DNA of 64,000 nucleotides from Facklamia languida CCUG 37842 (GCF_000245795.1 NZ_JH601133.1:1260994-1324993), one strand, 5' to 3'; shown: positions 12,067 to 40,741, numbered from the stretch's first letter. Notes: generated from the sequence alone by a model not told the origin. A program made the numbers and translations.

Positions 12067-12071
12067 ACGAT

Positions 12072-12153
12072 GCGTTACAAAGAAAAAGTTCCCGATAGGG
12101 TCTATGAAAGTAGATTTGCCTTGTAACCAAAAGAATGACTGGGGGAAATACTA
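12072..12153 (+). promoter_or_regulatory. SMK-box (SAM-III) riboswitch of metK
   Basis: The leader contains GTTACAA (12074-12080) pairing with TTGTAAC (12121-12127), enclosing TTCCCGATAGGG and a TCTATGAAAGTAGA hairpin. The Shine-Dalgarno GGGGGA lies just before the metK ATG. This matches the SMK-box layout known from Lactobacillales metK genes, where SAM binding pairs the ribosome site with upstream pyrimidines and blocks translation. Upstream of the promoter (11867-12036) I see only AT-rich intergenic DNA. Confidence 0.85.
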
Positions 12154-13337
12154 TGCAAGAAAGAAAATTATTTACATCGGAGTCCGTGACTGAAGGGCAT
12201 CCAGATAAGATTGCGGATCAAATATCCGATACAATCCTAGATGCTTTACTGGAACAAGATAAATTTGCGCGTGTAGCCTGTGAAACAGCAGTTAACACGG
12301 GTCTCGTGTTAGTCTTTGGTGAGGTGACTACGACCGCATATGTTGATATTCAGAAGCTAGTTCGTGAAAAAGTAGAAGAAATTGGCTACACCAGAGGAAA
12401 ATTCGGCTTTGACGCAGAGAATATCGCGGTCATTGTATCACTCGATGAGCAATCACCTGATATTGCTCAAGGGGTTGATCACGCCTTAGAGACCAGGGAC
12501 GATCAGTCGCAACAACAAGCAATTGGCGCTGGTGACCAGGGACTGATGTTTGGTTATGCCTGTGATGAGACGCCGGAATTAATGCCTTTACCGATCTCGC
12601 TTTCGCATAAACTGGCTTATCAATTAAGTCAAGTTCGTAAACAAGGTCACTTACCTTATCTTAGACCAGATGGAAAGACTCAGGTAACGGTGGAGTATGA
12701 TGAGCTCGACCAACCCGTTCATATTGATACAGTGGTGGTTTCTTGTCAGCACAGTGATGAAGTTCAACTTGAAGATTTACGAAAGGATATCTTGAATCAT
12801 GTCATTGAACCCACTCTACCAAGTGACTTGTTTGACTCTAAAACCAAGATTTTTATTAATCCGACTGGACGCTTCACCATTGGTGGACCTAAGGGAGACT
12901 CTGGATTGACTGGTCGCAAGATCATCGTAGATACTTACGGGGGGTATGCCCGCCATGGTGGTGGCGCTTTTTCGGGTAAGGATGCAACGAAAGTTGACCG
13001 TTCAGCTTCCTATGCGGCACGGTATGTTGCCAAGAATATTGTGGCAGCAGGCATCGCTAAAAAGGTAGAAATTCAATTAGCCTATGCCATCGGGGTTGCT
13101 CAGCCTGTTTCAATTAATGTAAATACATTTGGAACAGCGACCCACTCGAACCAGGAGATTGAACAGGCCATCCGTCAGCTATTTGACCTGACCCCTAGTG
13201 GCATTATCGAAATGTTAGATCTAAGACGTCCAATTTACGCTAAAACCGCGGCTTATGGTCACTTTGGTCGGGAAGGTGAAGAATTTACCTGGGAGCGAAC
13301 GGATCGCGTTGAGGAATTGTTATCCCTCCTAAGCTGA
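12153..13337 (+). CDS. metK: S-adenosylmethionine synthase
   Basis: A 394-aa enzyme that makes SAM from methionine and ATP. It shows the family signatures [14 protein letters not shown] near residue 10, [12 protein letters not shown] near 118 and the glycine-rich [16 protein letters not shown] near 250, followed by [16 protein letters not shown]. Length and termini are normal. The start is the ATG at 12153, because the SMK-box ribosome site GGGGGA lies 7 nt upstream; an earlier in-frame ATG at 12135 lies inside the riboswitch. Translation is predicted to be repressed when SAM is abundant. It is monocistronic, followed by an independent promoter for the next gene. Confidence 0.98.
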
Positions 13338-17273: not shown

Positions 17274-17843
17274 TTAAATTTTCTCAATGATTAAGAGGGA
17301 AGGCGGGGTGTTTTTCTGGTTGATGTATTCGAGGTGGCTAATTTGAAATTCTTGTTGTGACCAGCTTGTGAATGATTCAAGGAGGACTTGTTTTTCTTCA
17401 AGTCCCTGGGGATGACCAGCGTAGATAACCACTATGATTTGTCCCCCTTTAACCAATCGGTTTGCGATCTGTTCGATGGCTGCTTGGGTTGAAGAAGGAC
17501 GAGTTGTCATTTGGTGGCCGCCTCCAGGTAAATACCCCAAATTAAAAACTGCTCCATGAACTATAGGGTAGTCCAGGATTGAGACGAATTGATCAAATTG
17601 GTCGTGACTTGCTTCTAGTAATTGATAGTGTTCGACTGGGAAGCCAGCTAATTTTTCTTGACTAGACTGGATTGCCTGATGCTGGATATCAAAAGCAATG
17701 ACCTTTCCTTTAAAAAATGGATGCCGCAAGATAAAGGCAGTATCGTGCCCATTTCCTAAGGTGGCATCAATGAAAATACCAGCTGGAAAGAGATTAATTA
17801 ATTGGTCGAGATGGTGGTGACTCAACTGTACAGCGTTCTTCAT
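17274..17843 (-). CDS. mnmM: MnmM-type tRNA methyltransferase (YtqB family)
   Basis: A 189-aa class I SAM-dependent methyltransferase of the family once annotated as putative rRNA methylase (PF06962). The SAM motif is FIDATLGNGHDTAFI at about 24-38, and the family signature is VFNLGYLPGGGHQMTTRPSST at about 101-121. Characterised relatives methylate nm5s2U to mnm5s2U at the tRNA wobble position. It is monocistronic on the minus strand, convergent with the rhodanese gene. Length is normal. Orthology rests on family motifs, so specific function is inferred. Confidence 0.85.
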   Translation of the reverse strand: MKNAVQLSHHHLDQLINLFPAGIFIDATLGNGHDTAFILRHPFFKGKVIAFDIQHQAIQSSQEKLAGFPVEHYQLLEASHDQFDQFVSILDYPIVHGAVFNLGYLPGGGHQMTTRPSSTQAAIEQIANRLVKGGQIIVVIYAGHPQGLEEKQVLLESFTSWSQQEFQISHLEYINQKNTPPSLLIIEKI

Positions 17844-18002
17844 TTATATACTCCATTCTATCTGATTAGCTTGGTAATCGAATTAAGACTAGTATAAAGG
17901 ATTGGCTGTGAGTCTTGATATAGTTCGTATTACATTTGTGTTACATATGTTAAGTATCAAATAAAAGTCACCGAATTTCGACAAAGAAAAAAAGATAAAG
18001 GG

Positions 18003-18008
18003 TATAAT
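18003..18008 (+). promoter_or_regulatory. -10 element upstream of the autolysin gene
   Basis: TATAAT lies about 58 nt before the ATG. The best -35 candidate is TCGACA at 17978-17983, with a long 19-nt spacing. Confidence 0.4.
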
Positions 18009-18065
18009 AAAGGCGTTATCGATCCAATATTTATTATGGAAATAAAACCGTATGGAGGTTCACGA

Positions 18066-19775
18066 ATGATTCAATTACGTAATCAAAGAATGCGCCAAAT
18101 CGGCCGAAATAAAAGACATAAATTATATAAGAAACTAATAACCCAAGTAAATGCAGGGTTAATTCTATTTTCTGCTGGTTCTGTCTTGGGGAATCCTGTT
18201 GGTCAACCCCGTACAGTCAAAGCCCAAGACAGCTTAAAGAAGGTTTCACCTCTTGAATTTATTAATAATATCAAGCAGTCTGCAGAAAAAATAGCGGCTG
18301 AGAATAATCTTTATGCTTCAGTCATGATTGCTCAAGCAGCCTTAGAATCTGCTTGGGGAAATTCTAGACTTGCCCAGGCCCCAAATTACAATCTATTTGG
18401 AATCAAGGGGAATTATAAGGGTCAATCAACCAATATGGACACCTTGGAAGATGATGGAACAGGGAATTACTACCAAATCAAAGATGATTTTAGACGTTAT
18501 AATTCTTATGCCGAATCTTTAAATGACTATGCGGACCTCTTAACTGGTAAGGGTTCGCAGTGGCGCAGAGAGTTTTATGCGGGTGCTTTAAGATCCAATA
18601 CAAATTCTTACCATGATGCAACAGCCCACTTAACAGGGCGATATGCAACCGATACGAGCTATGGGTCCAAACTGAATAAAATTATTTCTGAATATAATTT
18701 AGATGCCTATGATGTAGCAGGACCTGCATCAAGAGCAAGCAGAAACTCTCAAAACAATTCGACAGCCGACCTCTCAAGAACGCCTAAACAAAGTGGTCAA
18801 ACTTCTACCGCATCAGCGAATTATCAAGTGAAGCCGGGAGATTCCATTTATCGGATTGCACGTCAGTTTGGTATCAAACCTCAAGATTTAATGGCCGCCA
18901 ATAATCTGCAGATAAGTTCGGTTATCCATCCTAACCAACGCCTAATCATTCCTGGAGCAACTTCCTCAAGTGTCGAATCTTCTAGGACACAGGTTACGGA
19001 GGCAAGAATCTCTAAGCAAGTGATTACACCTCCTGCTACTTCAGCTTCAAGTCAGACTGGTCAAAGACAGGGTGCTGGGTCTGCTAAATATACGGTTAAG
19101 AGTGGAGACTCTCTCTATGCGATTGCTGCTAAGCAAGGCTGCAATATTCAAGCGCTCTTGCAGGCGAACGGCCTATCACTTTCTTCTGTGATTCATCCCA
19201 ACCAACAGCTAGTGATCCCAGGTGGCACATCAAATGGATCAAATTCTAATCCAGTGCGGACAGATAATTCGGCTGGAACAAGGAAAGTGGTCGAAAAGAC
19301 AGTCGTCGCTGAAACAACTCAGCCAGCTGGACAAGCAGCAGGCCAAGGAAGTCGTTATACCGTCAAACCAGGCGATTCTTTATATGCCATTGCTCGTAAG
19401 ACCGGGACTGGCATCCAAACGCTTCTAGCAGCAAATGGTTTATCGTTAAACTCTGTGATTCATCCAGGCCAAGTGTTGAGCGTTTCTGGCCAGGTGCAAG
19501 AAGCATCAAGCACTGTTAATACTTATGTTGTCAATGAACCCACTAATCAAGTTGTTAAGGACTATAAGGAAGCCAATCAAGATGTTCCTGTTAAAGTGGG
19601 ACAAACTGAATATATCCAAGCAGAATCCGTTACAACGAACCAAGGAACTTATACTTGTAAGCAGGGGGATACCCTATGGGGGATCGCCAACCGCTATGGT
19701 ATGTCTTTAGAGACACTGGTTGCTAAGAACCATGGTATTTCGGCAATTTATCCAGGAACAGTCCTTTACGTATAA
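18066..19775 (+). CDS. Secreted GH73 N-acetylglucosaminidase with four LysM domains
   Basis: A 569-aa peptidoglycan hydrolase. The N-terminal 50 residues are a basic region plus hydrophobic export segment ending near VKAQDS. The glucosaminidase domain spans about 60-215, with SVMIAQAALESAWGNSRLA containing the likely catalytic Glu and NYNLFGIKGNYKG. Four LysM repeats follow at about 253-300, 340-388, 428-475 and 526-569, each opening Y-x-V/C-K-x-G-D and separated by Ser/Thr/Gln-rich linkers. It should bind and cut peptidoglycan glycan strands during cell separation. The start is the ATG 8 nt after TGGAGG; an earlier in-frame ATG at 18036 has no ribosome site. It is monocistronic. Confidence 0.93.
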   Translation: MIQLRNQRMRQIGRNKRHKLYKKLITQVNAGLILFSAGSVLGNPVGQPRTVKAQDSLKKVSPLEFINNIKQSAEKIAAENNLYASVMIAQAALESAWGNSRLAQAPNYNLFGIKGNYKGQSTNMDTLEDDGTGNYYQIKDDFRRYNSYAESLNDYADLLTGKGSQWRREFYAGALRSNTNSYHDATAHLTGRYATDTSYGSKLNKIISEYNLDAYDVAGPASRASRNSQNNSTADLSRTPKQSGQTSTASANYQVKPGDSIYRIARQFGIKPQDLMAANNLQISSVIHPNQRLIIPGATSSSVESSRTQVTEARISKQVITPPATSASSQTGQRQGAGSAKYTVKSGDSLYAIAAKQGCNIQALLQANGLSLSSVIHPNQQLVIPGGTSNGSNSNPVRTDNSAGTRKVVEKTVVAETTQPAGQAAGQGSRYTVKPGDSLYAIARKTGTGIQTLLAANGLSLNSVIHPGQVLSVSGQVQEASSTVNTYVVNEPTNQVVKDYKEANQDVPVKVGQTEYIQAESVTTNQGTYTCKQGDTLWGIANRYGMSLETLVAKNHGISAIYPGTVLYV

Positions 19776-19789
19776 TCGATTCATCAATA

Positions 19790-20036
19790 AATTTTTAGGA
19801 CCAAGTAGAATCCGTGAAATCTAAAGAGAGCCTATGGGTGGTGCGAGTAGGTAGATGGAACGATTTGAACTCTTCCTATTTAAAAGTTCGGGCGAAGCAA
19901 ACTTTGTGAACCCGAAACGTCTGGCGGCGTTAACGTCTTAAGCATTGGATCATCCAATGGAAGATAGGTGGTACCGCGCTATGAGCGCCCTATAAAGTCT
20001 TTTTCGGCAAGGACTTTATAGGGCTTTTATTTTTTA
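19790..20036 (+). promoter_or_regulatory. T-box leader of leuS (Leu, specifier CTC)
   Basis: The leader has a stem I region with AAAGAGAG and a likely specifier CTC in GAACTCTTCC (19870-19872). The T-box is AGGTGGTACCGCG at 19966-19978. A terminator hairpin, CCCTATAAAGTC / GACTTTATAGGG, is followed by CTTTTATTTTTT. Uncharged tRNA-Leu is predicted to favour the antiterminator and leuS transcription. Confidence 0.9.
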
Positions 20037-20057
20037 ATAAGAAAAGGAGTAATAACA

Positions 20058-22478
20058 ATGACCTATCAACATCGAACAATTGAAAAGAAATGGCAAGAAT
20101 TTTGGGATGATCACCAAACCTTTAAAACTAAAAATCGGCCCGGAAATAAAAAATATTATGTCTTAGATATGTTCCCTTATCCATCTGGACAAGGCCTACA
20201 TGTTGGCCATCCAGAAGGCTATACGGCAACAGATATCATGGCCCGCTTTAAAAGAGCTCAAGGTTATGATGTCTTACACCCAATGGGTTGGGATGCCTTT
20301 GGTCTTCCAGCTGAACAGTATGCCTTAGATACGGGAAATTCACCCGCAGAATTTACTGATAAAAATATTGCGAACTTTAAACGTCAGATTAAATCACTTG
20401 GTTTCTCCTATGATTGGGATCGTGAAATCTCAACAACAGACCCTCATTATTATAAGTGGACTCAGTGGATCTTTACGAAGTTATATGAACAAGGGCTTGC
20501 TTATGAAGCGGATGTGACGGTTAACTGGTGTGAAGCGCTAGGGACTGTTTTGGCAAATGAAGAGGTCATTGATGGGCTTTCTGAAAGAGGGGGCCATCCA
20601 GTTGTTCGCAAGCCAATGAAACAATGGGTGCTAAAGATTACTGCCTATGCCCAACGCTTGCTGGATGATTTGGAGGATTTAGATTGGTCCGAAAGCGTTA
20701 AAGAAATGCAACGTCATTGGATTGGCCGGTCGCAAGGAGCCGTGATTGATTTTGAGCTGAAGGGGAAAACAGAAAAAATTCAGACTTTCACGACCCGACC
20801 CGATACCCTTTTTGGCTTATCCTATCTTGTCCTTGCGCCTGAACACGAGATGGTGAATAAGATTGTTACGAGCTCACAAAAGGATCAAGTGGAAGCCTAT
20901 ATTGATCAAGCTAGTAAAAAGTCAGATCTGGATAGAACCGACCTGTCCAAGGATAAGACGGGTGTCTTTACTGGCGCTTATGCGATCCACCCAGTTACTG
21001 GCCAGGAACTTCCAATTTGGGTTGCGGATTATGTCTTAAATTCTTATGGAACGGGTGCTGTTATGGCGGTTCCAGGACATGATCAACGGGATTATGAATT
21101 TGCTAAGAAGTATGATTTGCCTATTCAAGAAGTAATTGAGTCACCAGCTGGAATTGATGAGCAGGCCTTTGAAGGGGATGGTCCTCATATTCATTCACAA
21201 TTCTTAGACGGGTTAGATAACCAAGCAGCCATTCAAGCGATGATTGAATGGTTAGAAAGTGAAGGGAAAGGACAAGGACAAGTCAATTATCGGTTGAGAG
21301 ACTGGATTTTCTCCCGTCAACGCTATTGGGGTGAACCGATTCCTGTTATTCATTGGGAAGATGGGACTACAAGTGTTGTAAGCGAAGAGGACTTGCCTGT
21401 TGCGCTACCTAAAGCCACCAATATTCACCCATCTGGGACAGGTGAATCTCCACTGGCTAATTTAACGGATTGGTTAGAAGTGACTGACCCTAAGACCGGT
21501 ATGAAAGGCCGTCGTGAAACGAATACCATGCCTCAATGGGCGGGGTCTTCTTGGTACTTTATCCGTTATATGGACCCTCAAAATACCTCCGAAATTGCTT
21601 CTAAAGATGCCCTGGACAAGTGGCAAAATGTTGACCTCTATATTGGGGGAGCGGAGCATGCGGTGCTTCACTTGCTTTATGCACGATTCTGGCATAAGTT
21701 CCTCTATGACCTCGGGGTGGTTCCAACTAAAGAACCCTTCCAGCGTCTGTTCAACCAAGGAATGATTTTGGGTGCAAATAACGAGAAGATGTCAAAATCG
21801 AAAGGCAATGTTGTGAATCCAGATGATGTCGTCCAAGAATATGGGGCAGATACCTTAAGGGTCTACGAAATGTTCATGGGACCATTGGATGCTTCGATTG
21901 CTTGGTCCGAAAACGGGCTGGAAGGGTCACGGCGGTTCTTAGAACGTGTTTGGCGTTTGTTTATTGATGAAGAAAGCAATGAATTGAAGGAAACAGTCAA
22001 AGAAGCTGATAATGAGAAATTAACCAAAGTTTACCATCAGACGGTTAAGAAAGTGACTGAGGATTATGACCAGCTCCATTTTAATACGGCGATTTCTCAA
22101 CTCATGATCTTCCTCAATGAAGCCAAGGGAGAGGAAGTCCTGCCTAAGCAGTATGCAGAAGGCTTTGTTCAGCTTCTGGCACCGATTGCACCGCATTTAA
22201 TGGAAGAGCTTTGGCAAAAACTTGGCCACGAAGAGTCAATTTCTGAAGTGCCTTGGCCAACCTATGATGAAGCGCTCACTGTCGAGAACCAAGTAGAGAT
22301 CGTCTTGCAAATTAATGGCAAAGTCAAAGCCAAAGAGACCATTGCCCTTGACTTAGATAAGTCAGCCATGGAGGAAGTGGCCCTGCGGAACGAAACGATC
22401 CAAGAAGAACTAACTGGTAAAACGATACGCAAGGTGATCGCGATCCCCAATCGTTTGGTGAATATTGTTGCCAATTAG
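20058..22478 (+). CDS. leuS: Leucyl-tRNA synthetase
   Basis: An 806-aa class I aminoacyl-tRNA synthetase. The HIGH-type motif is [16 protein letters not shown] near residue 41. The CP1 editing domain, with [10 protein letters not shown] near 245, is present. The KMSKS motif is EKMSKSKGN near 578. The C-terminal anticodon-binding domain ends VNIVAN. It charges tRNA-Leu in the cytoplasm. The start ATG follows AAAAGGAG. It is under a Leu T-box, so expression rises on leucine starvation. No anomalies were seen. Confidence 0.98.
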
Positions 22479-34405: not shown

Positions 34406-34434
34406 TTGACAACGCTTTTCTTTCAAGGTACCCT
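34406..34434 (+). promoter_or_regulatory. Promoter of the four-gene cyclodeaminase/ClpB/transporter operon
   Basis: TTGACA at 34406-34411, 17-nt spacer, TACCCT at 34429-34434. No other promoter is evident before the four closely spaced genes. Confidence 0.65.
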
Positions 34435-34485
34435 AAGGCTAGGATGATACCTAAAAGTCATTTATTATTCTGAGGAGGTTTTATT

Positions 34486-35658
34486 TTGTTAGATATTTAT
34501 AAGTATCAAGCACCTGACTTTACAGCAGAAGCCTTTGCGCAAGCTCCGGATGTGACAACAGCGTCCGTGACCAAGGACGGAATCGTGCCCTCTGGTTTCT
34601 ACTTGACAACCCATATGCCGACCTACTATCGGGTAAAGGGAGAATGGCGCTTACCTAAGCGGTCTTCATTGAACTGTGTAGCGGTTCTTGCGGAAGATCA
34701 AGTGGTGATTAAAGAGATCCGTGATGTTAAGGTTGGCGACGAGATCGTGATGGGACGAGGCATTGATGCCAGCCAAGGAATCTTCGTTCACAAGGATGGG
34801 TTTGATCCTGCTGTGACACGTAATGGAGGAGACTTTGTCGAAGCGGCCAATACCTCAAATTATAATTTAATCTATGACCTGCTCAAATATGAGAAAGAAA
34901 ATAATGGCTATATCGCCTGGGTCTTAGGTCCAGCTGTGGTCTTCGACCATAATACGCGGAATGGACTGTCTAAATTAGCTGAGAATGGCTATGTTCATTC
35001 GCTCTTAGGTGGAAATGCCATGTGTACCCATGACCTTGAAGGCGGCTATCTGAACACTGCTTTGGGTCAAGATATTTATACCCAAGAATCAGACCCCATG
35101 GGTCACTATAACCATTTAGATCTCTTGAATGCCGTACGACGGACAGGATCCATTAAAGAATTTATCGCCGAAGGGAACGTGAAGGACGGCTTTATTAAGA
35201 CTTTAGTGAAGTTAGATGTTCCGATCGTATTAGCCGGCTCCATCCGGGATGATGGTCCATTACCGGAAGTGACGAGTGATGTCTATGAATCCTTGACCAA
35301 TGCGAGCGAAGAATTGGCTAAAGCAACGCTGGTCGTTTGTTTAGCGACGACCCTTCACTCCGCTTCCAGTGCTGAGATTTCTTCTTCCTACCGCGTAGAT
35401 GAAGCAGGGAATGTTCTACCTGTCTTCTTCTATACCATTGATGTCACTGAGAATGCAGTTCGTAAGGTGTCTGCTGCACGTGATAACTTGGCCGTTCGTT
35501 CTCTGGTGACAAATGTACAGGACTTTGTAAATAACTTAGAGGATGCTCTGGTTAATGATACCTACGCGGAAGAAGACCGGGTAGAAGTCGAGGACAGTCA
35601 AGCGGTAGTTGTCCCTCAAGAGCAAGTTATTAGTGACCACCAGGTCGATTCATTATAG
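34486..35658 (+). CDS. TIGR00300 / LOR-SDH family protein A (archaeal-type ornithine cyclodeaminase-like)
   Basis: 390 aa, starting at a TTG 7 nt after GAGGAGG. The N-terminal about 100 residues resemble the LOR/SDH conserved domain. The core has the NAD-linked family signatures LLGGNAMCTHDLEGG near 182, GHYNHLD near 207 and VLAGSIRDDGPLPEVTSDV near 247, followed by TTLHSASSAEISSS. Members include archaeal ornithine cyclodeaminases and the C-terminal part of cyanobacterial ArgZ/AgrE. This gene has no arginine-dihydrolase domain. The last 35 residues are an acidic tail not seen in protein B. It is the first gene of an operon with a paralog, a ClpB-like ATPase and a transporter. Family assignment is by motif memory; the substrate is unproven. 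Confidence 0.75.
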   Translation: MLDIYKYQAPDFTAEAFAQAPDVTTASVTKDGIVPSGFYLTTHMPTYYRVKGEWRLPKRSSLNCVAVLAEDQVVIKEIRDVKVGDEIVMGRGIDASQGIFVHKDGFDPAVTRNGGDFVEAANTSNYNLIYDLLKYEKENNGYIAWVLGPAVVFDHNTRNGLSKLAENGYVHSLLGGNAMCTHDLEGGYLNTALGQDIYTQESDPMGHYNHLDLLNAVRRTGSIKEFIAEGNVKDGFIKTLVKLDVPIVLAGSIRDDGPLPEVTSDVYESLTNASEELAKATLVVCLATTLHSASSAEISSSYRVDEAGNVLPVFFYTIDVTENAVRKVSAARDNLAVRSLVTNVQDFVNNLEDALVNDTYAEEDRVEVEDSQAVVVPQEQVISDHQVDSL

Positions 35659-35671
35659 AAAGGGGACCATT

Positions 35672-36775
35672 ATGAAGAAACAATTTGAATTACCTACTTA
35701 TCACGAACCTGATTTCACTCAAGATAAATTTGTAAAGGCTCCTAATGCGACCCTCGTTGAAGTGGAGAAAGATGGTATCTCACCTGAAAATTACCATGCC
35801 CTATCTGTCTTTCCTGAATATTTCAAAATTAACAATAAGTGGGTCTTAGCGGTTCAAAGTCGGATGGATACGGTCTGTGTGGCACATGATACACCTGGAC
35901 AAGAAAGTGTGGATATTGTTGAATTCCGTAATCTCAAGAAAGGTGATAAGGTCGTAGTCGGCCGGACTGAAGATGGGTCAGAAGGAATCTTTGTTCATAC
36001 TGAAGGCTTCCTAGAGGAAGCGAGTGAAGCGGCGACTTTCGGGTTTAGAACGGGACGGTCAAGAGAAACAGCCTTTTCTAAAGATTATGATGATATCTTT
36101 GACCTATTAGAGTATGAGAAAGAAAATAATGGCTATATCACTTGGATTTTGGGGACAGCGACTTCCTTGGACCAAAAGAGCCGCCATGCTCTGCAGAAAT
36201 TGGTCGAAGCGGGCTATATGAATGCCATCTTCTGTGGAACGACTGCTGTAGCAGCCGATCTTGAGTTGGGAACTTATGGCAGTGTTATTGGACAAGCCGA
36301 ATACCTCAATGACCAAAATTCTTACCAAAATTATTATGAAGTGATTAATGCCGTTAATGAAGCAGGTGGTATCGAAGCTTATGTTAAGTCTGGTAAGGTT
36401 AAAGATGGCTTCGTTAAGGCATGTATCGAGAATGGGGTCGAAATCGTTATTGCGGGCACAATCCGGGACCGGTTAACTTTCCCAGATACTTATAATGATG
36501 TCTATGAAGCTCAGGACGCGATGAGAGCTCATGTTAAGAAGACTTCAACGATTATTATGACTTCCGCGATTCTCTTTACGATTGCTTCAGGAAATATGAC
36601 CCCTTCATATAATGAATTTGATGGCAAGGTGCGACCCGTTTATATGTATACGGTCGATATTCAAGAATTTGCCGTGAATAAGTTGTCTGACCGTGGTACT
36701 TTGACGGCTAAGTCGATCGTGACGAATACACAAGACTTTGTCAGCCACATCTCACGGCATTTAACGCAAGATTAA
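35672..36775 (+). CDS. TIGR00300 / LOR-SDH family protein B, divergent paralog
   Basis: 367 aa; the ATG follows AAAGGGG, 13 nt after gene A. It aligns with A along its whole length (shared LLxYEKENNGYI, GKVKDGF, IAGTIRD, VTNTQDFV), but family signature residues differ. The GN and HD of A's GGNAMCTHD become GTTAVAAD, A's GHYNH becomes QNYYE, and A's RDDGPLP becomes RDRLTFP. Its C-terminal DIQEFAVNKLSDRGT is closer to the archaeal family than A's. It may be a non-catalytic or differently specific partner of A. It is co-transcribed with A and with the ClpB-like gene 17 nt downstream. Confidence 0.7.
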   Translation: MKKQFELPTYHEPDFTQDKFVKAPNATLVEVEKDGISPENYHALSVFPEYFKINNKWVLAVQSRMDTVCVAHDTPGQESVDIVEFRNLKKGDKVVVGRTEDGSEGIFVHTEGFLEEASEAATFGFRTGRSRETAFSKDYDDIFDLLEYEKENNGYITWILGTATSLDQKSRHALQKLVEAGYMNAIFCGTTAVAADLELGTYGSVIGQAEYLNDQNSYQNYYEVINAVNEAGGIEAYVKSGKVKDGFVKACIENGVEIVIAGTIRDRLTFPDTYNDVYEAQDAMRAHVKKTSTIIMTSAILFTIASGNMTPSYNEFDGKVRPVYMYTVDIQEFAVNKLSDRGTLTAKSIVTNTQDFVSHISRHLTQD

Positions 36776-36792
36776 GAAAGGGGCTTTGAGGC

Positions 36793-39330
36793 ATGGAGAC
36801 TAAGTACTCTGCTAGGGCAGGGATGGTCATTAAAGAAGCAAAGGACTTAGCCATTCTACACAATAATCCTCAGATTGAAGACCTGCATGTCCACCTGGCC
36901 CTCTTACAACAGAATCACTCTCCCTTGGATCAAGTTTTTGAATACTTTGCGATCGATAAAGCTAGTTACCAAAAGAAGATCCAAGCGGCGGTGGAACGTC
37001 TCAGCTCCAATCCTGGTCTTAGCAACTTATATTATAGCCGCGACTACCAGCGCCTACTTTTGCAGGCCAAAGAGGTGGCTAAGGAGCTCTATCATACCTC
37101 GATCTCGACCCTCCATCTCTTCTTGGCCCTCCTGCGGTTAGAGGGGAGTACCAGCTATCATTTTTTACAGAAGAATGGGTTTGATTATCAAGCCACTTAT
37201 GATTATATCCTTGAATTGAGTCAGACTCACAACTTAAATGAGCGCTACCCACAAGGTCTAGCAGAGGTGCTCAAGCAATATGGGAGCGATTTGACGGAGG
37301 CTGCCCGGCAAGGACAGATTGATCCGGTAGTTGGAATGGATGATGAGATTAACCGGGTGATCCAGGTGCTGAGTCGACGGATCAAGAATAATCCAGTGAT
37401 TGTCGGAGAACCAGGCGTCGGTAAGACGGCAGTGGTCGAAGGCCTCGCACACCGCATTGTCAACCAGGATGTTCCAGAATCCTTACGTCATCGGATGATC
37501 TTCTCCTTAAGATTGTCCGATGTCATTGCAGGTTCTAAATTAAGAGGAGAATTTGAGGAGAAGCTGCGCGAGATCTTAGATATAGTCGCCAATGCTAACC
37601 ACCAAATCATCCTCTTTATTGATGAACTGCATACAGTGGTTGGTATGGGAGGCGGTTCCGGTGGTGTCGATACATCGAATATTCTTAAGCCTCTCCTTGC
37701 TCGGGGTCAGATTAATGTCATCGGTGCAACTACCCATGCTGAGTATGCGCGCTATATCCAGAAAGATGGAGCATTGGAACGGCGCTTTCAGAAGATCATC
37801 GTTCAGGAGCCATCCGTTTCGGATACCATTTCGATTCTAAGAGGGATAAAAAGTAAGTATGAAGCCTATCATGGCTTGCGAATCAAGGATGAAGCCTTAG
37901 TGGCCTGTGCTAAACTATCCGACCGTTATATCACGGGCCGTCGCTTGCCAGATAAGGCGATTGATGTGATGGATGAAGCCTGTTCGATGGTACGCACGGA
38001 AATTGACGCCATGCCGGTTGAGTTAGATGACTTGAAACGGCGTATTTTACAGTTGCAGGTTGAGAAGGTTCGCCTCAAGGAGGAGGATTCAACCAACCCA
38101 GAAGTGGCACAATTACAAGCCGAAATTGAAGAGCTGACGGACCAATTTGAAGCAGATAAGGCGAACTGGCAAAGTGAGAAACGGGCGATGAAAAAGCTAC
38201 AAAAGATTCAAGATCAAATTGATCAGCTAGAGCGGCAGACATCCCAAGCCCAGCAGGAAGATGACTTTGAGGAGATTGTTAACTATTCACATGTCAAAAT
38301 ACCTAAACTGCGCGCTCAAGCTCAAGAATTATTGAGTCGGCCTTACCGTTATAATCTAATTGAAGAGGTGAATCGTCAGCATATCTGTGAGATCATCTCC
38401 AAGTCGAGTGGGATTCCCGTCATGGATTTGAACCAGGATGAAGTGGCCCAATTATTGAACCTGGACCAGCGGCTCCGAGAAAAAGTGATTGGACAAGAAG
38501 CAGCGATTCATCAGGTAGCAGGAAGTATTCTGAGGGCGAAAGTGGGCTTAAAAGCAGTCAATAAACCGATTGCTTCTTTTCTCTTCCTCGGTCCTACAGG
38601 TGTTGGAAAGACTTACCTAGCCAAAGTCTTGGCCAGTGAATTATACCAGGGTCCAGAAGCCCTGATTCGCTTGGACATGAGTGAGTATATGGAGAAGAAC
38701 TCTGTGACTAAGTTAATTGGAGCACCTCCAGGCTACATTGGTTACGAAGAAGGGGGGCAATTAACGGAGCGGATTTTAAATCAGCCCTACTCGATTATCC
38801 TCTTTGATGAGATAGAGAAAGCCCATCCTCAGATCTTTAATTTGCTCTTACAGATATTAGATGAAGGACAGATTACAGACAACAAGGGGCGCAGGGTTGA
38901 TTTTGCGAACACCTTGATCTTATTAACTTCGAATGTCGCAGGTGAGTCGGTAGGCCAAGAAGACCACCTGGAAGACCAGCTTCTTGAGACTTTCCGACCA
39001 GAGTTTCTGAATCGATTAACCGGGATTATTCCCTTCCGTCGCCTAACCAAGTCCGCAATCCGCCAGATTATTGACCTCCATCTGGAAGAGACGGTCCAAT
39101 TGCTCGCCGATCGCCAATTGTCCATTGAACTCTCACCAGCGAGTGTCGAAGCGATTATGGCAGGGTCCGATTATTTAGCTTATGGATCGCGAGAAGTAGT
39201 CCGGTTGATTCATAATGAGATTGAGACACTCTTGGCAGTCGCCATTCTTCAAGGTCAAGTGAAAGACCGAGCCCAGATCCTGGTCGATTATAATGACCAG
39301 CAGCAGTTTTATATTGCTGCGATTGACTAA
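36793..39330 (+). CDS. ClpB-like AAA+ protein unfoldase
   Basis: 845 aa with the ClpB layout. The Clp N-domain repeat spans about 1-140. D1 has Walker A GEPGVGKT at 205-212 and Walker B LFIDELH. A ClpB-type coiled-coil M-domain spans about 405-510. D2 has Walker A GPTGVGKT at 600-607, pore loop GYIGY at about 648 and Walker [11 protein letters not shown]. No ClpP-docking loop is visible between D2 Walker B and the C-terminus, so disaggregation rather than proteolysis is expected. The D1 pore loop reads [10 protein letters not shown], with Leu where ClpB normally has Tyr (AKYRGEFEE). It lies third in the operon with the TIGR00300 pair and a transporter, and no CIRCE or CtsR-like site is seen. 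It could be a specialised paralog or the only ClpB. Confidence 0.88.
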
Positions 39331-39357
39331 AATTTTTTCTAAGATGGAGGTAGCCTT

Positions 39358-40506
39358 ATGGCTCAAAAAGTGACTTATAAAAAGACAGTCGGTCCAGAGA
39401 ATGTGATCTTTTTGATTGTGTTTTTTGGGATCTTTATTGCAATTGGGAGTGTGATGGGGGCAGCCAATATGCTGTCGACCATCATGTCGACTGCTTTTGA
39501 CCTGTTAGTGAATACCTGTTTGTATATTATGGCCATATCCGTCGTAGCGGGGGCCTTATCAGGAATTTTCTCTGAATTTGGTTTTGTTGCATTAGTGAAT
39601 GCTTTAATTAATATTTTTATGAAACCGGTTTATGACCTACCCGGTGCTTCTTCACTTGGGGTCTTAAATTGTTATTTATCGGACAACCCAGCTATTTTGA
39701 CACTGGCTGGGGAAGATAACTTTAAGCGTTACTTTAAGAAATACCAGCTTCCAGCCTTAACCAATCTGGGTACTTCATTCGGGATGGGGCTGATAGTGAC
39801 CACTACTATGATGGGCTTTGCTGGAGAAGACACGGTGAAGGGGGCCCTAATTGGAAATTTGGGTGCCATCATTGGTAGTATTGTGAGTGTACGCTTGATG
39901 TTACACTTTACTCGCAAAGTATATGGCACCACAGATTGGGTGGAGACAAAGTCGTTAGAAGATGTACCGGAGGGTTATCGGACCGTCCGTCAAGGCAGTT
40001 TTGGCTCCCGTTTATTGGAAGCGCTTCTAGATGGTGGAAAGAGTGGGGTTGACATGGGCCTTGCTATTATTCCAGGTGTTATCATTATGTGTACCATGGT
40101 CCTTCTCTTAACAAACGGACCGGGACCAGATGGGGTCTACACCGGTGGACTGGGAGAGGGGATTCCTCTCTTACCCTGGATTGGGGAGAAGTTATCCTTT
40201 ATTCTTACGCCGATCTTTGGCTTTTCGAGCCCCGCTTCTATTGCGGTTCCGATCACAGCACTCGGTTCAGCCGGAGCAGCTGTCGGCATGGCAGGCAAAA
40301 TGGCTGCTTCTGGCATGATTACGGGGAGCGATGTGGCGGTATTTACTGCCATGTGCATGTGCTGGTCAGGTTATTTATCGACTCATATCGCCATGATGGA
40401 TGCTTTGGATACTAAGGAAGTCACTGGCTATGCGATTCTGAGCCATACCATTGGCGGACTAGTGGCGGGGGCTGCAGCTAATTTGATCTTTACCCTGATT
40501 GGCTAA
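39358..40506 (+). CDS. Gate-domain (nucleoside-recognition type) membrane transporter
   Basis: A 382-aa polytopic membrane protein with about nine or ten helices, including VIFLIVFFGIFIAIGSVMG near 16, a Gate-like segment VVAGALSGIFSEFGFVALVNAL near 62 and GALIGNLGAIIGSIVSV near 163. Conserved-looking polar motifs are LSDNPAIL near 108 and SAGAAVGMAGKMAASG near 303. It resembles Gate/nucleoside-recognition family proteins of Firmicutes with unknown substrate. It is the last gene of the operon, 27 nt after clpB-like, with ATGGAGG before its ATG. Its linkage to ornithine-cyclodeaminase-like proteins makes an amino acid or its product a reasonable substrate guess, but this is inference. Confidence 0.65.
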   Translation: MAQKVTYKKTVGPENVIFLIVFFGIFIAIGSVMGAANMLSTIMSTAFDLLVNTCLYIMAISVVAGALSGIFSEFGFVALVNALINIFMKPVYDLPGASSLGVLNCYLSDNPAILTLAGEDNFKRYFKKYQLPALTNLGTSFGMGLIVTTTMMGFAGEDTVKGALIGNLGAIIGSIVSVRLMLHFTRKVYGTTDWVETKSLEDVPEGYRTVRQGSFGSRLLEALLDGGKSGVDMGLAIIPGVIIMCTMVLLLTNGPGPDGVYTGGLGEGIPLLPWIGEKLSFILTPIFGFSSPASIAVPITALGSAGAAVGMAGKMAASGMITGSDVAVFTAMCMCWSGYLSTHIAMMDALDTKEVTGYAILSHTIGGLVAGAAANLIFTLIG

Positions 40507-40676: not shown

Positions 40677-40741
40677 ACACCGAATGTGAGATCACTAGGG
40701 GGCAGAAGATCTGCCGCCATGATCTATCATTCGGTGTCTTT
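40677..40741. terminator. Long terminator hairpin after the four-gene operon
   Basis: ACACCGAATG and CATTCGGTGT arms with inner stems (AGATCA / TGATCT, GCAG / CTGC) and a T-rich tail. It lies between convergent units and may serve both. The sequence 40507-40676 before it holds no gene I can support. Confidence 0.75.

What the first reader, a model, noticed from the sequence alone, without database searches (positions are those of the whole stretch)
34406..40506. Four-gene operon: two ornithine-cyclodeaminase-like paralogs + ClpB-like ATPase + Gate transporter
Seen: one promoter (TTGACA/TACCCT), spacings of 13, 17 and 27 nt, one terminator at 40677. The first two proteins have signatures of the TIGR00300/LOR-SDH family (archaeal ornithine cyclodeaminase, ArgZ/AgrE C-terminal part). 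Inference: the Gate protein may import or export the substrate, and the ClpB-like ATPase may remodel or assemble the A/B enzyme. I know of no characterised system with this composition. It may be a new amino-acid or metabolite utilisation unit with a dedicated unfoldase.
Basis: partly seen in the sequence, partly recalled or inferred. Interest (0 to 1): 0.75.

Follow-up and report, generated by a model that had tools for sequence, protein, structure and literature searches.

The report
Two-subunit ornithine-to-proline enzyme with dedicated chaperone
Two neighbouring genes look like the two broken halves of one ancient enzyme, each having lost the parts the other kept, so they probably work only as a pair that turns ornithine into proline, and they travel between bacteria together with their own protein-remodelling chaperone.

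Summary
The four-gene unit is real: A (34486-35658), B (35672-36775), ClpB-like (36793-39330) and a Gate-type transporter (39358-40506), with gaps of 13, 17 and 27 nt and a strong terminator. A and B are paralogues of the "putative NPN-dependent ornithine cyclodeaminase" family (NCBIfam NF052526).

Most relatives have one copy; 17 genomes carry a tandem A-B pair. Of 94 positions nearly invariant in single-copy enzymes, 37 are kept in both, 24 only in A, 33 only in B, and none is lost from both (8.4 expected). This reciprocal decay points to an obligate A:B heteromer with a shared active site. The fold is related to deoxyhypusine synthase, where trypanosomes use the same arrangement.

Neighbouring genes (arginine deiminase, ornithine carbamoyltransferase, carbamate kinase) point to ornithine as substrate. 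The extra ClpB is a separate clade, found near A-B pairs but not single-copy genes, and its tree mirrors A's (r=0.89).

Some A-B clusters contain all nickel-pincer cofactor genes (larB, larC, larE), yet this 99%-complete genome has no larC and no larE above cut-off. Its cofactor (NAD+, or scavenged NPN) is open. Nothing was tested biochemically.

The parts
34406..34434 (+). Possible promoter: TTGACA, 17 nt, TACCCT (weak -10)
   Evidence: Read from the sequence; not found by the consensus scan
34486..35658 (+). Gene A (390 aa, TTG start): catalytic-loop half of the proposed ornithine cyclodeaminase pair
   Evidence: NF052526 431 bits, PF21570 E 1.8e-45; AF2 pLDDT 87.2, pTM 0.86; Foldseek 3c2q, AgrE, ArgZ
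35011..35034 (+). A residues 176-183 (GNAMCTHD): conserved in single-copy enzymes, largely lost from B
35101..35115 (+). A residues 206-210 (GHYNH): kept in A, lost from B
35239..35259 (+). A residues 252-258 (SIRDDGP): kept in A; B has TIRDRLT
35672..36775 (+). Gene B (367 aa): complementary half of the pair, keeps the N-domain and C-terminal motif set
   Evidence: NF052526 457 bits, above cut-off; AF2 pLDDT 85.1, pTM 0.83; Foldseek 3c2q, AgrE
35858..35869 (+). B residues 63-66 (SRMD): invariant in single-copy enzymes, lost from A
36044..36067 (+). B residues 125-132 (FRTGRSRE): kept in B, lost from A
36590..36604 (+). B residues 307-311 (GNMTP): kept in B; A has AEISS
36793..39330 (+). Dedicated ClpB-like AAA+ unfoldase (845 aa, both Walker A motifs intact)
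   Evidence: TIGR03346 948 bits, below its cut-off of 1232; separate clade from housekeeping ClpB, SH-aLRT 100; tree mirrors A
39358..40506 (+). CD0519/CD1768-family (Gate-like) membrane transporter, substrate unknown
   Evidence: NF049989 587 bits; family above cut-off in 12 of 17 A-B genomes against 6 of 43 single-copy genomes
40677..40737 (.). Terminator hairpin, possibly bidirectional, between convergent genes
   Evidence: RNA fold -42.9 kcal/mol, z -8.4

Best explanation
A and B are the two subunits of one obligately heteromeric ornithine cyclodeaminase, descended by duplication from the single-copy clostridial enzyme. In a homo-oligomer of this deoxyhypusine-synthase-like fold, each active site would be built from two faces on different subunits. 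After duplication A kept one face (GNAxxTHD, GHYNH, SIRDDGP, H291) and let the other decay; B did the reverse. An A:B dimer would then have one good composite site and one dead site. It converts ornithine, the product of the arginine deiminase / ornithine carbamoyltransferase route, to proline and ammonia, using a pyridinium hydride cofactor (NAD+ as in AgrE, or nickel-pincer nucleotide). The operon's own ClpB acts on this enzyme: it helps assemble the heteromer, or strips and reloads dead complexes or cofactor. The membrane protein moves a substrate, product or cofactor precursor. Shown by computation: the gene unit, reciprocal loss, phylogeny, co-inheritance with ClpB, and pathway neighbours in other genomes. 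Inferred: heteromer, trans active site, reaction, cofactor, ClpB client and transport.
For: Reciprocal decay: of 94 columns at least 97% conserved in 73 single-copy (S) enzymes, 37 are kept in both, 24 in A only, 33 in B only, 0 in neither (8.4 expected; Fisher 8e-6). Of the 53 also conserved in the distant TIGR00300 type: 20 both, 16 A only, 17 B only, 0 neither. Per genome, joint losses sum to 10 against 112 expected, while S proteins have a median of 0 losses. A and B are each one clade, nested with the S type. Their ORFs touch or overlap in several genomes. Fold: A and B match 3c2q, AgrE with ornithine and NAD+ (6lrg) and ArgZ, then deoxyhypusine synthases including T. brucei 6dft. There the sites lie at the dimer interface with residues from both subunits (PMC7226451), and the trypanosome paralogues share one live and one dead site per heterodimer (PMC7581365). 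Pathway: arcA-OTC-S order in L083 and L096; OTC and/or carbamate kinase around A-B in G005, G054, G063, Neofamilia and Anaerococcus. This genome has arcA-OTC-arcC elsewhere. ClpB: near 8 of 13 A-B loci and 0 of 67 S loci (p 4e-8); own clade; r=0.89 with A, 0 of 20000 permutations as high. Purifying selection on all four genes.
Against: ClpB was not found near A-B in L058, L060, L066, L069 and L088 (some of these contigs are short), so it is not strictly required. Shared vertical and horizontal descent also produces congruent trees. The reaction rests on family names and neighbours; the NCBIfam name itself says 'putative'. The A-B operon of this genome has no arginine-pathway gene beside it.
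Confidence: 0.6

Rival explanations
1. A and B are two separate homo-oligomeric enzymes that diverged to different substrates or steps; the residue differences reflect new specificities.
For: A and B are only 38% identical. Each is under purifying selection and its own clade. Each gives a confident monomer model.
Against: Neo-functionalisation does not predict that nearly every conserved residue lost by one is kept by the other (0 of 94 lost in both groups), nor that each lost 16-17 residues conserved even in the distant TIGR00300 type. They are adjacent, in the order A-B, in all 17 genomes.
Confidence: 0.15
2. A is the catalyst and B only a regulatory or stabilising pseudoenzyme that contributes no active-site residues.
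For: B has lost the GNAxxTHD, GHYNH and SIRDDGP motifs that look most like a catalytic centre.
Against: B keeps 33 near-invariant positions that A lost, so it does more than persist as scaffold; A alone lacks ancient residues that B keeps, such as M65, D66, Q281, R285, N308 and D340 in B numbering.
Confidence: 0.15
3. The enzyme is nickel-pincer nucleotide (NPN) dependent and this organism lives on scavenged or imported NPN or precursor; NAD+ is not the cofactor. (This concerns the cofactor and is compatible with the heteromer.)
For: larE-larC follow A-B directly and larB lies in the same cluster in G063; clpB-A-B-larE-larB-larC in Anaerococcus mt242 (L064); larC-larE-larB upstream in G054. 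NCBIfam names the family NPN-dependent.
Against: No larC and no larE above cut-off in this genome. In a phylum sample larC is rarer in genomes with any member of the wider enzyme family than in the rest (12/41 against 212/357). AgrE was crystallised with NAD+ (6lrg). The library held no paper on NPN-dependent ornithine cyclodeaminase.
Confidence: 0.28
4. ClpB and the transporter are neighbours by chance or share only regulation; they do not act on or for the A/B enzyme.
For: Five A-B loci lack a nearby clpB in the DNA held; the transporter sits apart from A-B in some genomes.
Against: Extra ClpB near A-B only, not near S-type genes; one clade; congruent trees across apparent transfers into the window's family.
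Confidence: 0.2

Closest known systems
NF052526 (ODC_var), putative NPN-dependent ornithine cyclodeaminase, single-copy type mostly of Clostridia
   Same: Same family and length; B above and A just below the curated cut-off; overlapping arginine-pathway neighbours
   Different: Single-copy members keep both motif sets; here they are split between two genes, with a dedicated ClpB
TIGR00300 archaeal-type ornithine cyclodeaminase (3c2q) and the C-terminal half of ArgZ/AgrE (6juy, 6lrg)
   Same: Same fold; A and B score 190 and 165 bits; 25-30% identity in the Foldseek alignments
   Different: Those are single polypeptides; scores here are far below the TIGR00300 cut-off; no arginine dihydrolase domain
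Trypanosomatid deoxyhypusine synthase DHSc/DHSp (6dft)
   Same: Distantly related fold (E about 1e-4); two paralogues with complementary roles, one live and one dead site per heterodimer (PMC7581365)
   Different: Different reaction, eukaryotic, about 10% identity, no link to a chaperone known to me
mu-crystallin-type ornithine cyclodeaminase (e.g. Pseudomonas)
   Same: Same proposed reaction, ornithine to proline
   Different: Unrelated family by sequence; no such match in these proteins. The comparison rests on general knowledge
ClpB disaggregase (TIGR03346)
   Same: Clp_N domain, two AAA+ modules, Walker motifs
   Different: 284 bits under the ClpB cut-off and a clade apart from the housekeeping ClpB of the same genome

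Membership tests
NF052526 ODC_var | Score at or above the curated cut-off of 440 bits | tested here: inconclusive
   B 457.2 (met), A 431 (not met, by 9 bits), near full-length matches
NF052526 ODC_var | Residues near-invariant in single-copy members present in the protein | tested here: not met
   Window A lacks 25 and window B lacks 25 of 94; only one column is lost from both
NF052526 ODC_var | Converts ornithine to proline with NPN | not testable with these tools
   Needs an enzyme assay; the family name says putative
NPN-dependent enzymes | NPN biosynthesis genes larB, larC, larE in the genome | tested here: not met
   No larC, no larE above cut-off in G000; larB not tested in G000. larC present in 12 of 17 A-B genomes
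TIGR00300 ornithine cyclodeaminase | Score at or above 410.8 bits | tested here: not met
   190.3 and 165.1 bits
TIGR00300 / ArgZ-AgrE C-terminal fold | LOR/SDH-like fold | tested here: met
   Foldseek TM-score (target) 0.88 for A and 0.85 for B to 3c2q
ClpB (TIGR03346) | Score at or above 1232 bits | tested here: not met
   948 bits; domains and Walker motifs present
CD0519/CD1768 membrane proteins (NF049989) | Score at or above 300 bits | tested here: met
   587 bits over the full length
Shared-active-site paralogue pair (as DHSc/DHSp) | Complementary loss of conserved residues between paralogues | tested here: met
Shared-active-site paralogue pair (as DHSc/DHSp) | Physical heteromer with a composite site | not testable with these tools

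The most novel reading that the evidence does not exclude
A bacterial heteromeric nickel-pincer enzyme in an organism that cannot make the cofactor: the A:B enzyme is loaded with NPN (or a precursor nucleoside) scavenged from neighbours, the transporter being the importer and the dedicated ClpB opening the heteromer for cofactor insertion or exchange. I know of no NPN-sharing system. Hints: the transporter gene lies beside lar genes in G063, G488 and G489, and is retained in lar-less G000, G005 and G487. Nothing here excludes it, but plain NAD+ dependence explains the lar-less genomes more simply.
Probability: 0.13. Interest if true: 0.87.

Novelty: new variant of a known kind. Interest (0 to 1): 0.62.

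Why it matters
Reciprocal decay of two paralogues into one enzyme is a textbook idea with few clean natural cases. Here a widespread single-copy relative, an outgroup family and 17 natural pairs make it quantitatively testable. It also ties a ClpB-type unfoldase to a single metabolic enzyme, which is unusual. And it raises a concrete question about cofactor choice or cofactor sharing in ornithine-to-proline conversion, a step that can feed proline-based fermentation in host-associated anaerobes.

Tried and rejected
Mapping the residue sets in 3D was impossible because no coordinates are released.

'The transporter replaces the lar genes' was tested as a complementary presence/absence pattern and rejected: 9 of 17 A-B genomes have both. 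'The family as a whole co-occurs with larC' was tested and not supported: in the phylum sample larC is under-represented among genomes with any family member, while in the NF052526-type set it is mildly enriched (45/60 against 224/398).

Anti-phage defence was considered for the ClpB; PADLOC hits are generic AAA matches and none fits A, B or the transporter. Rfam gave nothing in or near the operon.

B residue numbers printed are 15 too low because of a trimmed row; they are corrected in this report and agree.

Full report
OBSERVATION. The window carries four intact + strand genes: A 34486-35658, B 35672-36775, a ClpB-like gene 36793-39330 and a membrane protein 39358-40506, separated by 13, 17 and 27 nt. 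Upstream is a gene that I read as pheT (ends 34265); downstream, on the other strand, an amino-acid ABC transporter (both named by eye). A strong hairpin at about 40677-40737 (-42.9 kcal/mol, z -8.4) separates the convergent genes. The genome is one contig of 1.72 Mb, 99% complete.

FAMILIES. A and B match Pfam ArgZ-like C-terminal domains and, best, NCBIfam NF052526 'putative NPN-dependent ornithine cyclodeaminase': B 457 and A 431 bits against a cut-off of 440. Both are far below the TIGR00300 cut-off. The third protein has ClpB architecture but lies 284 bits below the ClpB cut-off. The fourth is a full-length NF049989 (CD0519/CD1768) protein.

DISTRIBUTION. The A-B tandem occurs in 4 of 76 genomes of the window's family. 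A scan of 84,980 species gave 80 best loci of more than 588: 13 more A-B tandems (Anaerococcus, Peptoniphilus, Neofamilia, Tissierellia, Clostridium psychrophilum and others) and 67 other loci, with single-copy (S) genes mostly from Clostridia. In a tree A and B are each one clade, nested with the S type. Genomes of the window's family fall in three places among Anaerococcus and Neofamilia relatives for A and for ClpB, and for two of these three also clearly for B, which suggests repeated transfer of the whole module (inference).

RECIPROCAL DECAY. I took columns at least 97% conserved among 73 S proteins (94 columns). A (17 sequences) and B (17 sequences) both keep 37; A alone keeps 24; B alone keeps 33; none is lost from both, against 8.4 expected by independence (Fisher 8e-6). 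The deficit of joint losses is present at every threshold tried. Restricting to 53 columns also conserved in the distant TIGR00300 type gives 20, 16, 17 and 0. Within the 17 genomes the joint losses sum to 10 against 112 expected. S proteins have a median of zero losses. A keeps W145, P149, F153, N177, A178, T181, H182, T191-L193, G206-Y208, H210, S252, D256-P258 and H291, among others; B keeps H42, E49, S63-D66, G97, R98, F123, F125, R126, S130, R131, Y278, Q281, M284, R285, A305, G307, N308, T310, R321, F333, L338, D340 and G342, among others. (B numbers printed are 15 too low; one search gives the right ones.) Caveats: the test treats columns as independent, the 17 pairs are related to each other, and the two sets also separate partly by region (A-only 145-291; B-only N-domain and C-terminal part). 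All four genes are under purifying selection relative to G063, with synonymous sites near saturation.

STRUCTURE AND PRECEDENT. AlphaFold models of A (pLDDT 87, pTM 0.86) and B (85, 0.83) match the M. maripaludis LOR/SDH protein 3c2q, AgrE in complex with ornithine and NAD+ (6lrg), and ArgZ, then deoxyhypusine synthases, including the T. brucei enzyme 6dft. In deoxyhypusine synthase each active site lies at a dimer interface and is formed by residues of both subunits (PMC7226451). The trypanosomatid paralogues form a heterodimer with one functional and one dead site (PMC7581365). This is the arrangement the A-B residue pattern predicts. I could not model the complex.

PATHWAY. In other genomes the enzyme genes sit with arginine deiminase and ornithine carbamoyltransferase (L083, L096), or with ornithine carbamoyltransferase, carbamate kinase and/or an AgcS symporter (G005, G054, G063, L057, L061-L063, L065) (representative members confirmed by family models). 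The window's genome has arcA-OTC-arcC about 108 kb away. Ornithine is therefore the likely substrate. Clostridial conversion of ornithine to proline is described as feeding proline-based fermentation (PMC3091704, PMC9815643, PMC13410763); whether the present family contributes to it is not established.

CLPB. The window's genome has a second, housekeeping-type ClpB (44% identical). The twelve operon ClpBs form one clade apart from housekeeping ClpB and other Clp ATPases (SH-aLRT 100). Among loci a ClpB lies near 8 of 13 A-B pairs and 0 of 67 other loci (p 4e-8). Distances correlate with A at 0.89 (0 of 20000 permutations as high) and with B at 0.76. A functional tie is likely; the client is inferred.

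COFACTOR. In G063 one cluster holds A, B, larE, larC1, larC2, DUF3842, an AraC-type regulator, agcS, arcC, clpB, OTC, the transporter and larB. In L064 the order is clpB-A-B-larE-larB-larC; in G054 larC-larE-larB lie upstream. Yet G000 lacks larC and any larE above cut-off, as does G005, and across the phylum the wider family does not go with larC. NAD+ binding has structural support in AgrE. I leave the cofactor open: NAD+ somewhat favoured for this genome, NPN favoured where lar genes are in the cluster.

VERDICT. New variant of a known kind: a heteromeric, reciprocally degenerate ornithine cyclodeaminase with a dedicated ClpB. Rough confidence (judgement, not computed): heteromer with shared site 0.75, ornithine as substrate 0.7, ClpB acting on A/B 0.55, NPN as cofactor in this organism 0.25-0.3.

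Noticed in passing
L011:11383-11802, L087:12177-12587, L170:4362-4805, L171:3181-3591, L177:4083-4514: DUF3842 (PF12953; Pfam-confirmed in L011, by BLAST in the others) lies beside larB/larC/larE in five clusters: a candidate further player in nickel-pincer nucleotide synthesis or use.
   Followed up: partly
L064:15489-18403, L169:6866-9815, L170:7804-10649, L171:6739-9545: A FecBCD-type ABC importer, resembling B12/F420-0 transporters (families checked only in L169), follows the lar genes and could import nickel complexes or the cofactor. L087 and L177 have an Opp/Nik-like ABC transporter there instead, judged by eye.
   Followed up: partly
L087:9995-11101 and 17734-20663: Peptacetobacter hominis has a single-copy enzyme gene within 7 kb of larB-larC-larE.
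   Followed up: partly
L069 and L088: The A-B pair of Clostridium psychrophilum (L069) is less degenerate than the others (24 and 16 losses) and may be an early stage of the split; the Tissierellia pair L088 is fast-evolving.
   Followed up: partly
window 19787-19995, 12070-12155 and 23-93: T-box leader, SAM-III (SMK) riboswitch and a tRNA gene, all on the + strand.
   Followed up: no
L013:5816-8153; also L061-L066: In G054 and several other genomes the end of A and the start of B touch or overlap, suggesting translational coupling and matched subunit supply.
   Followed up: partly
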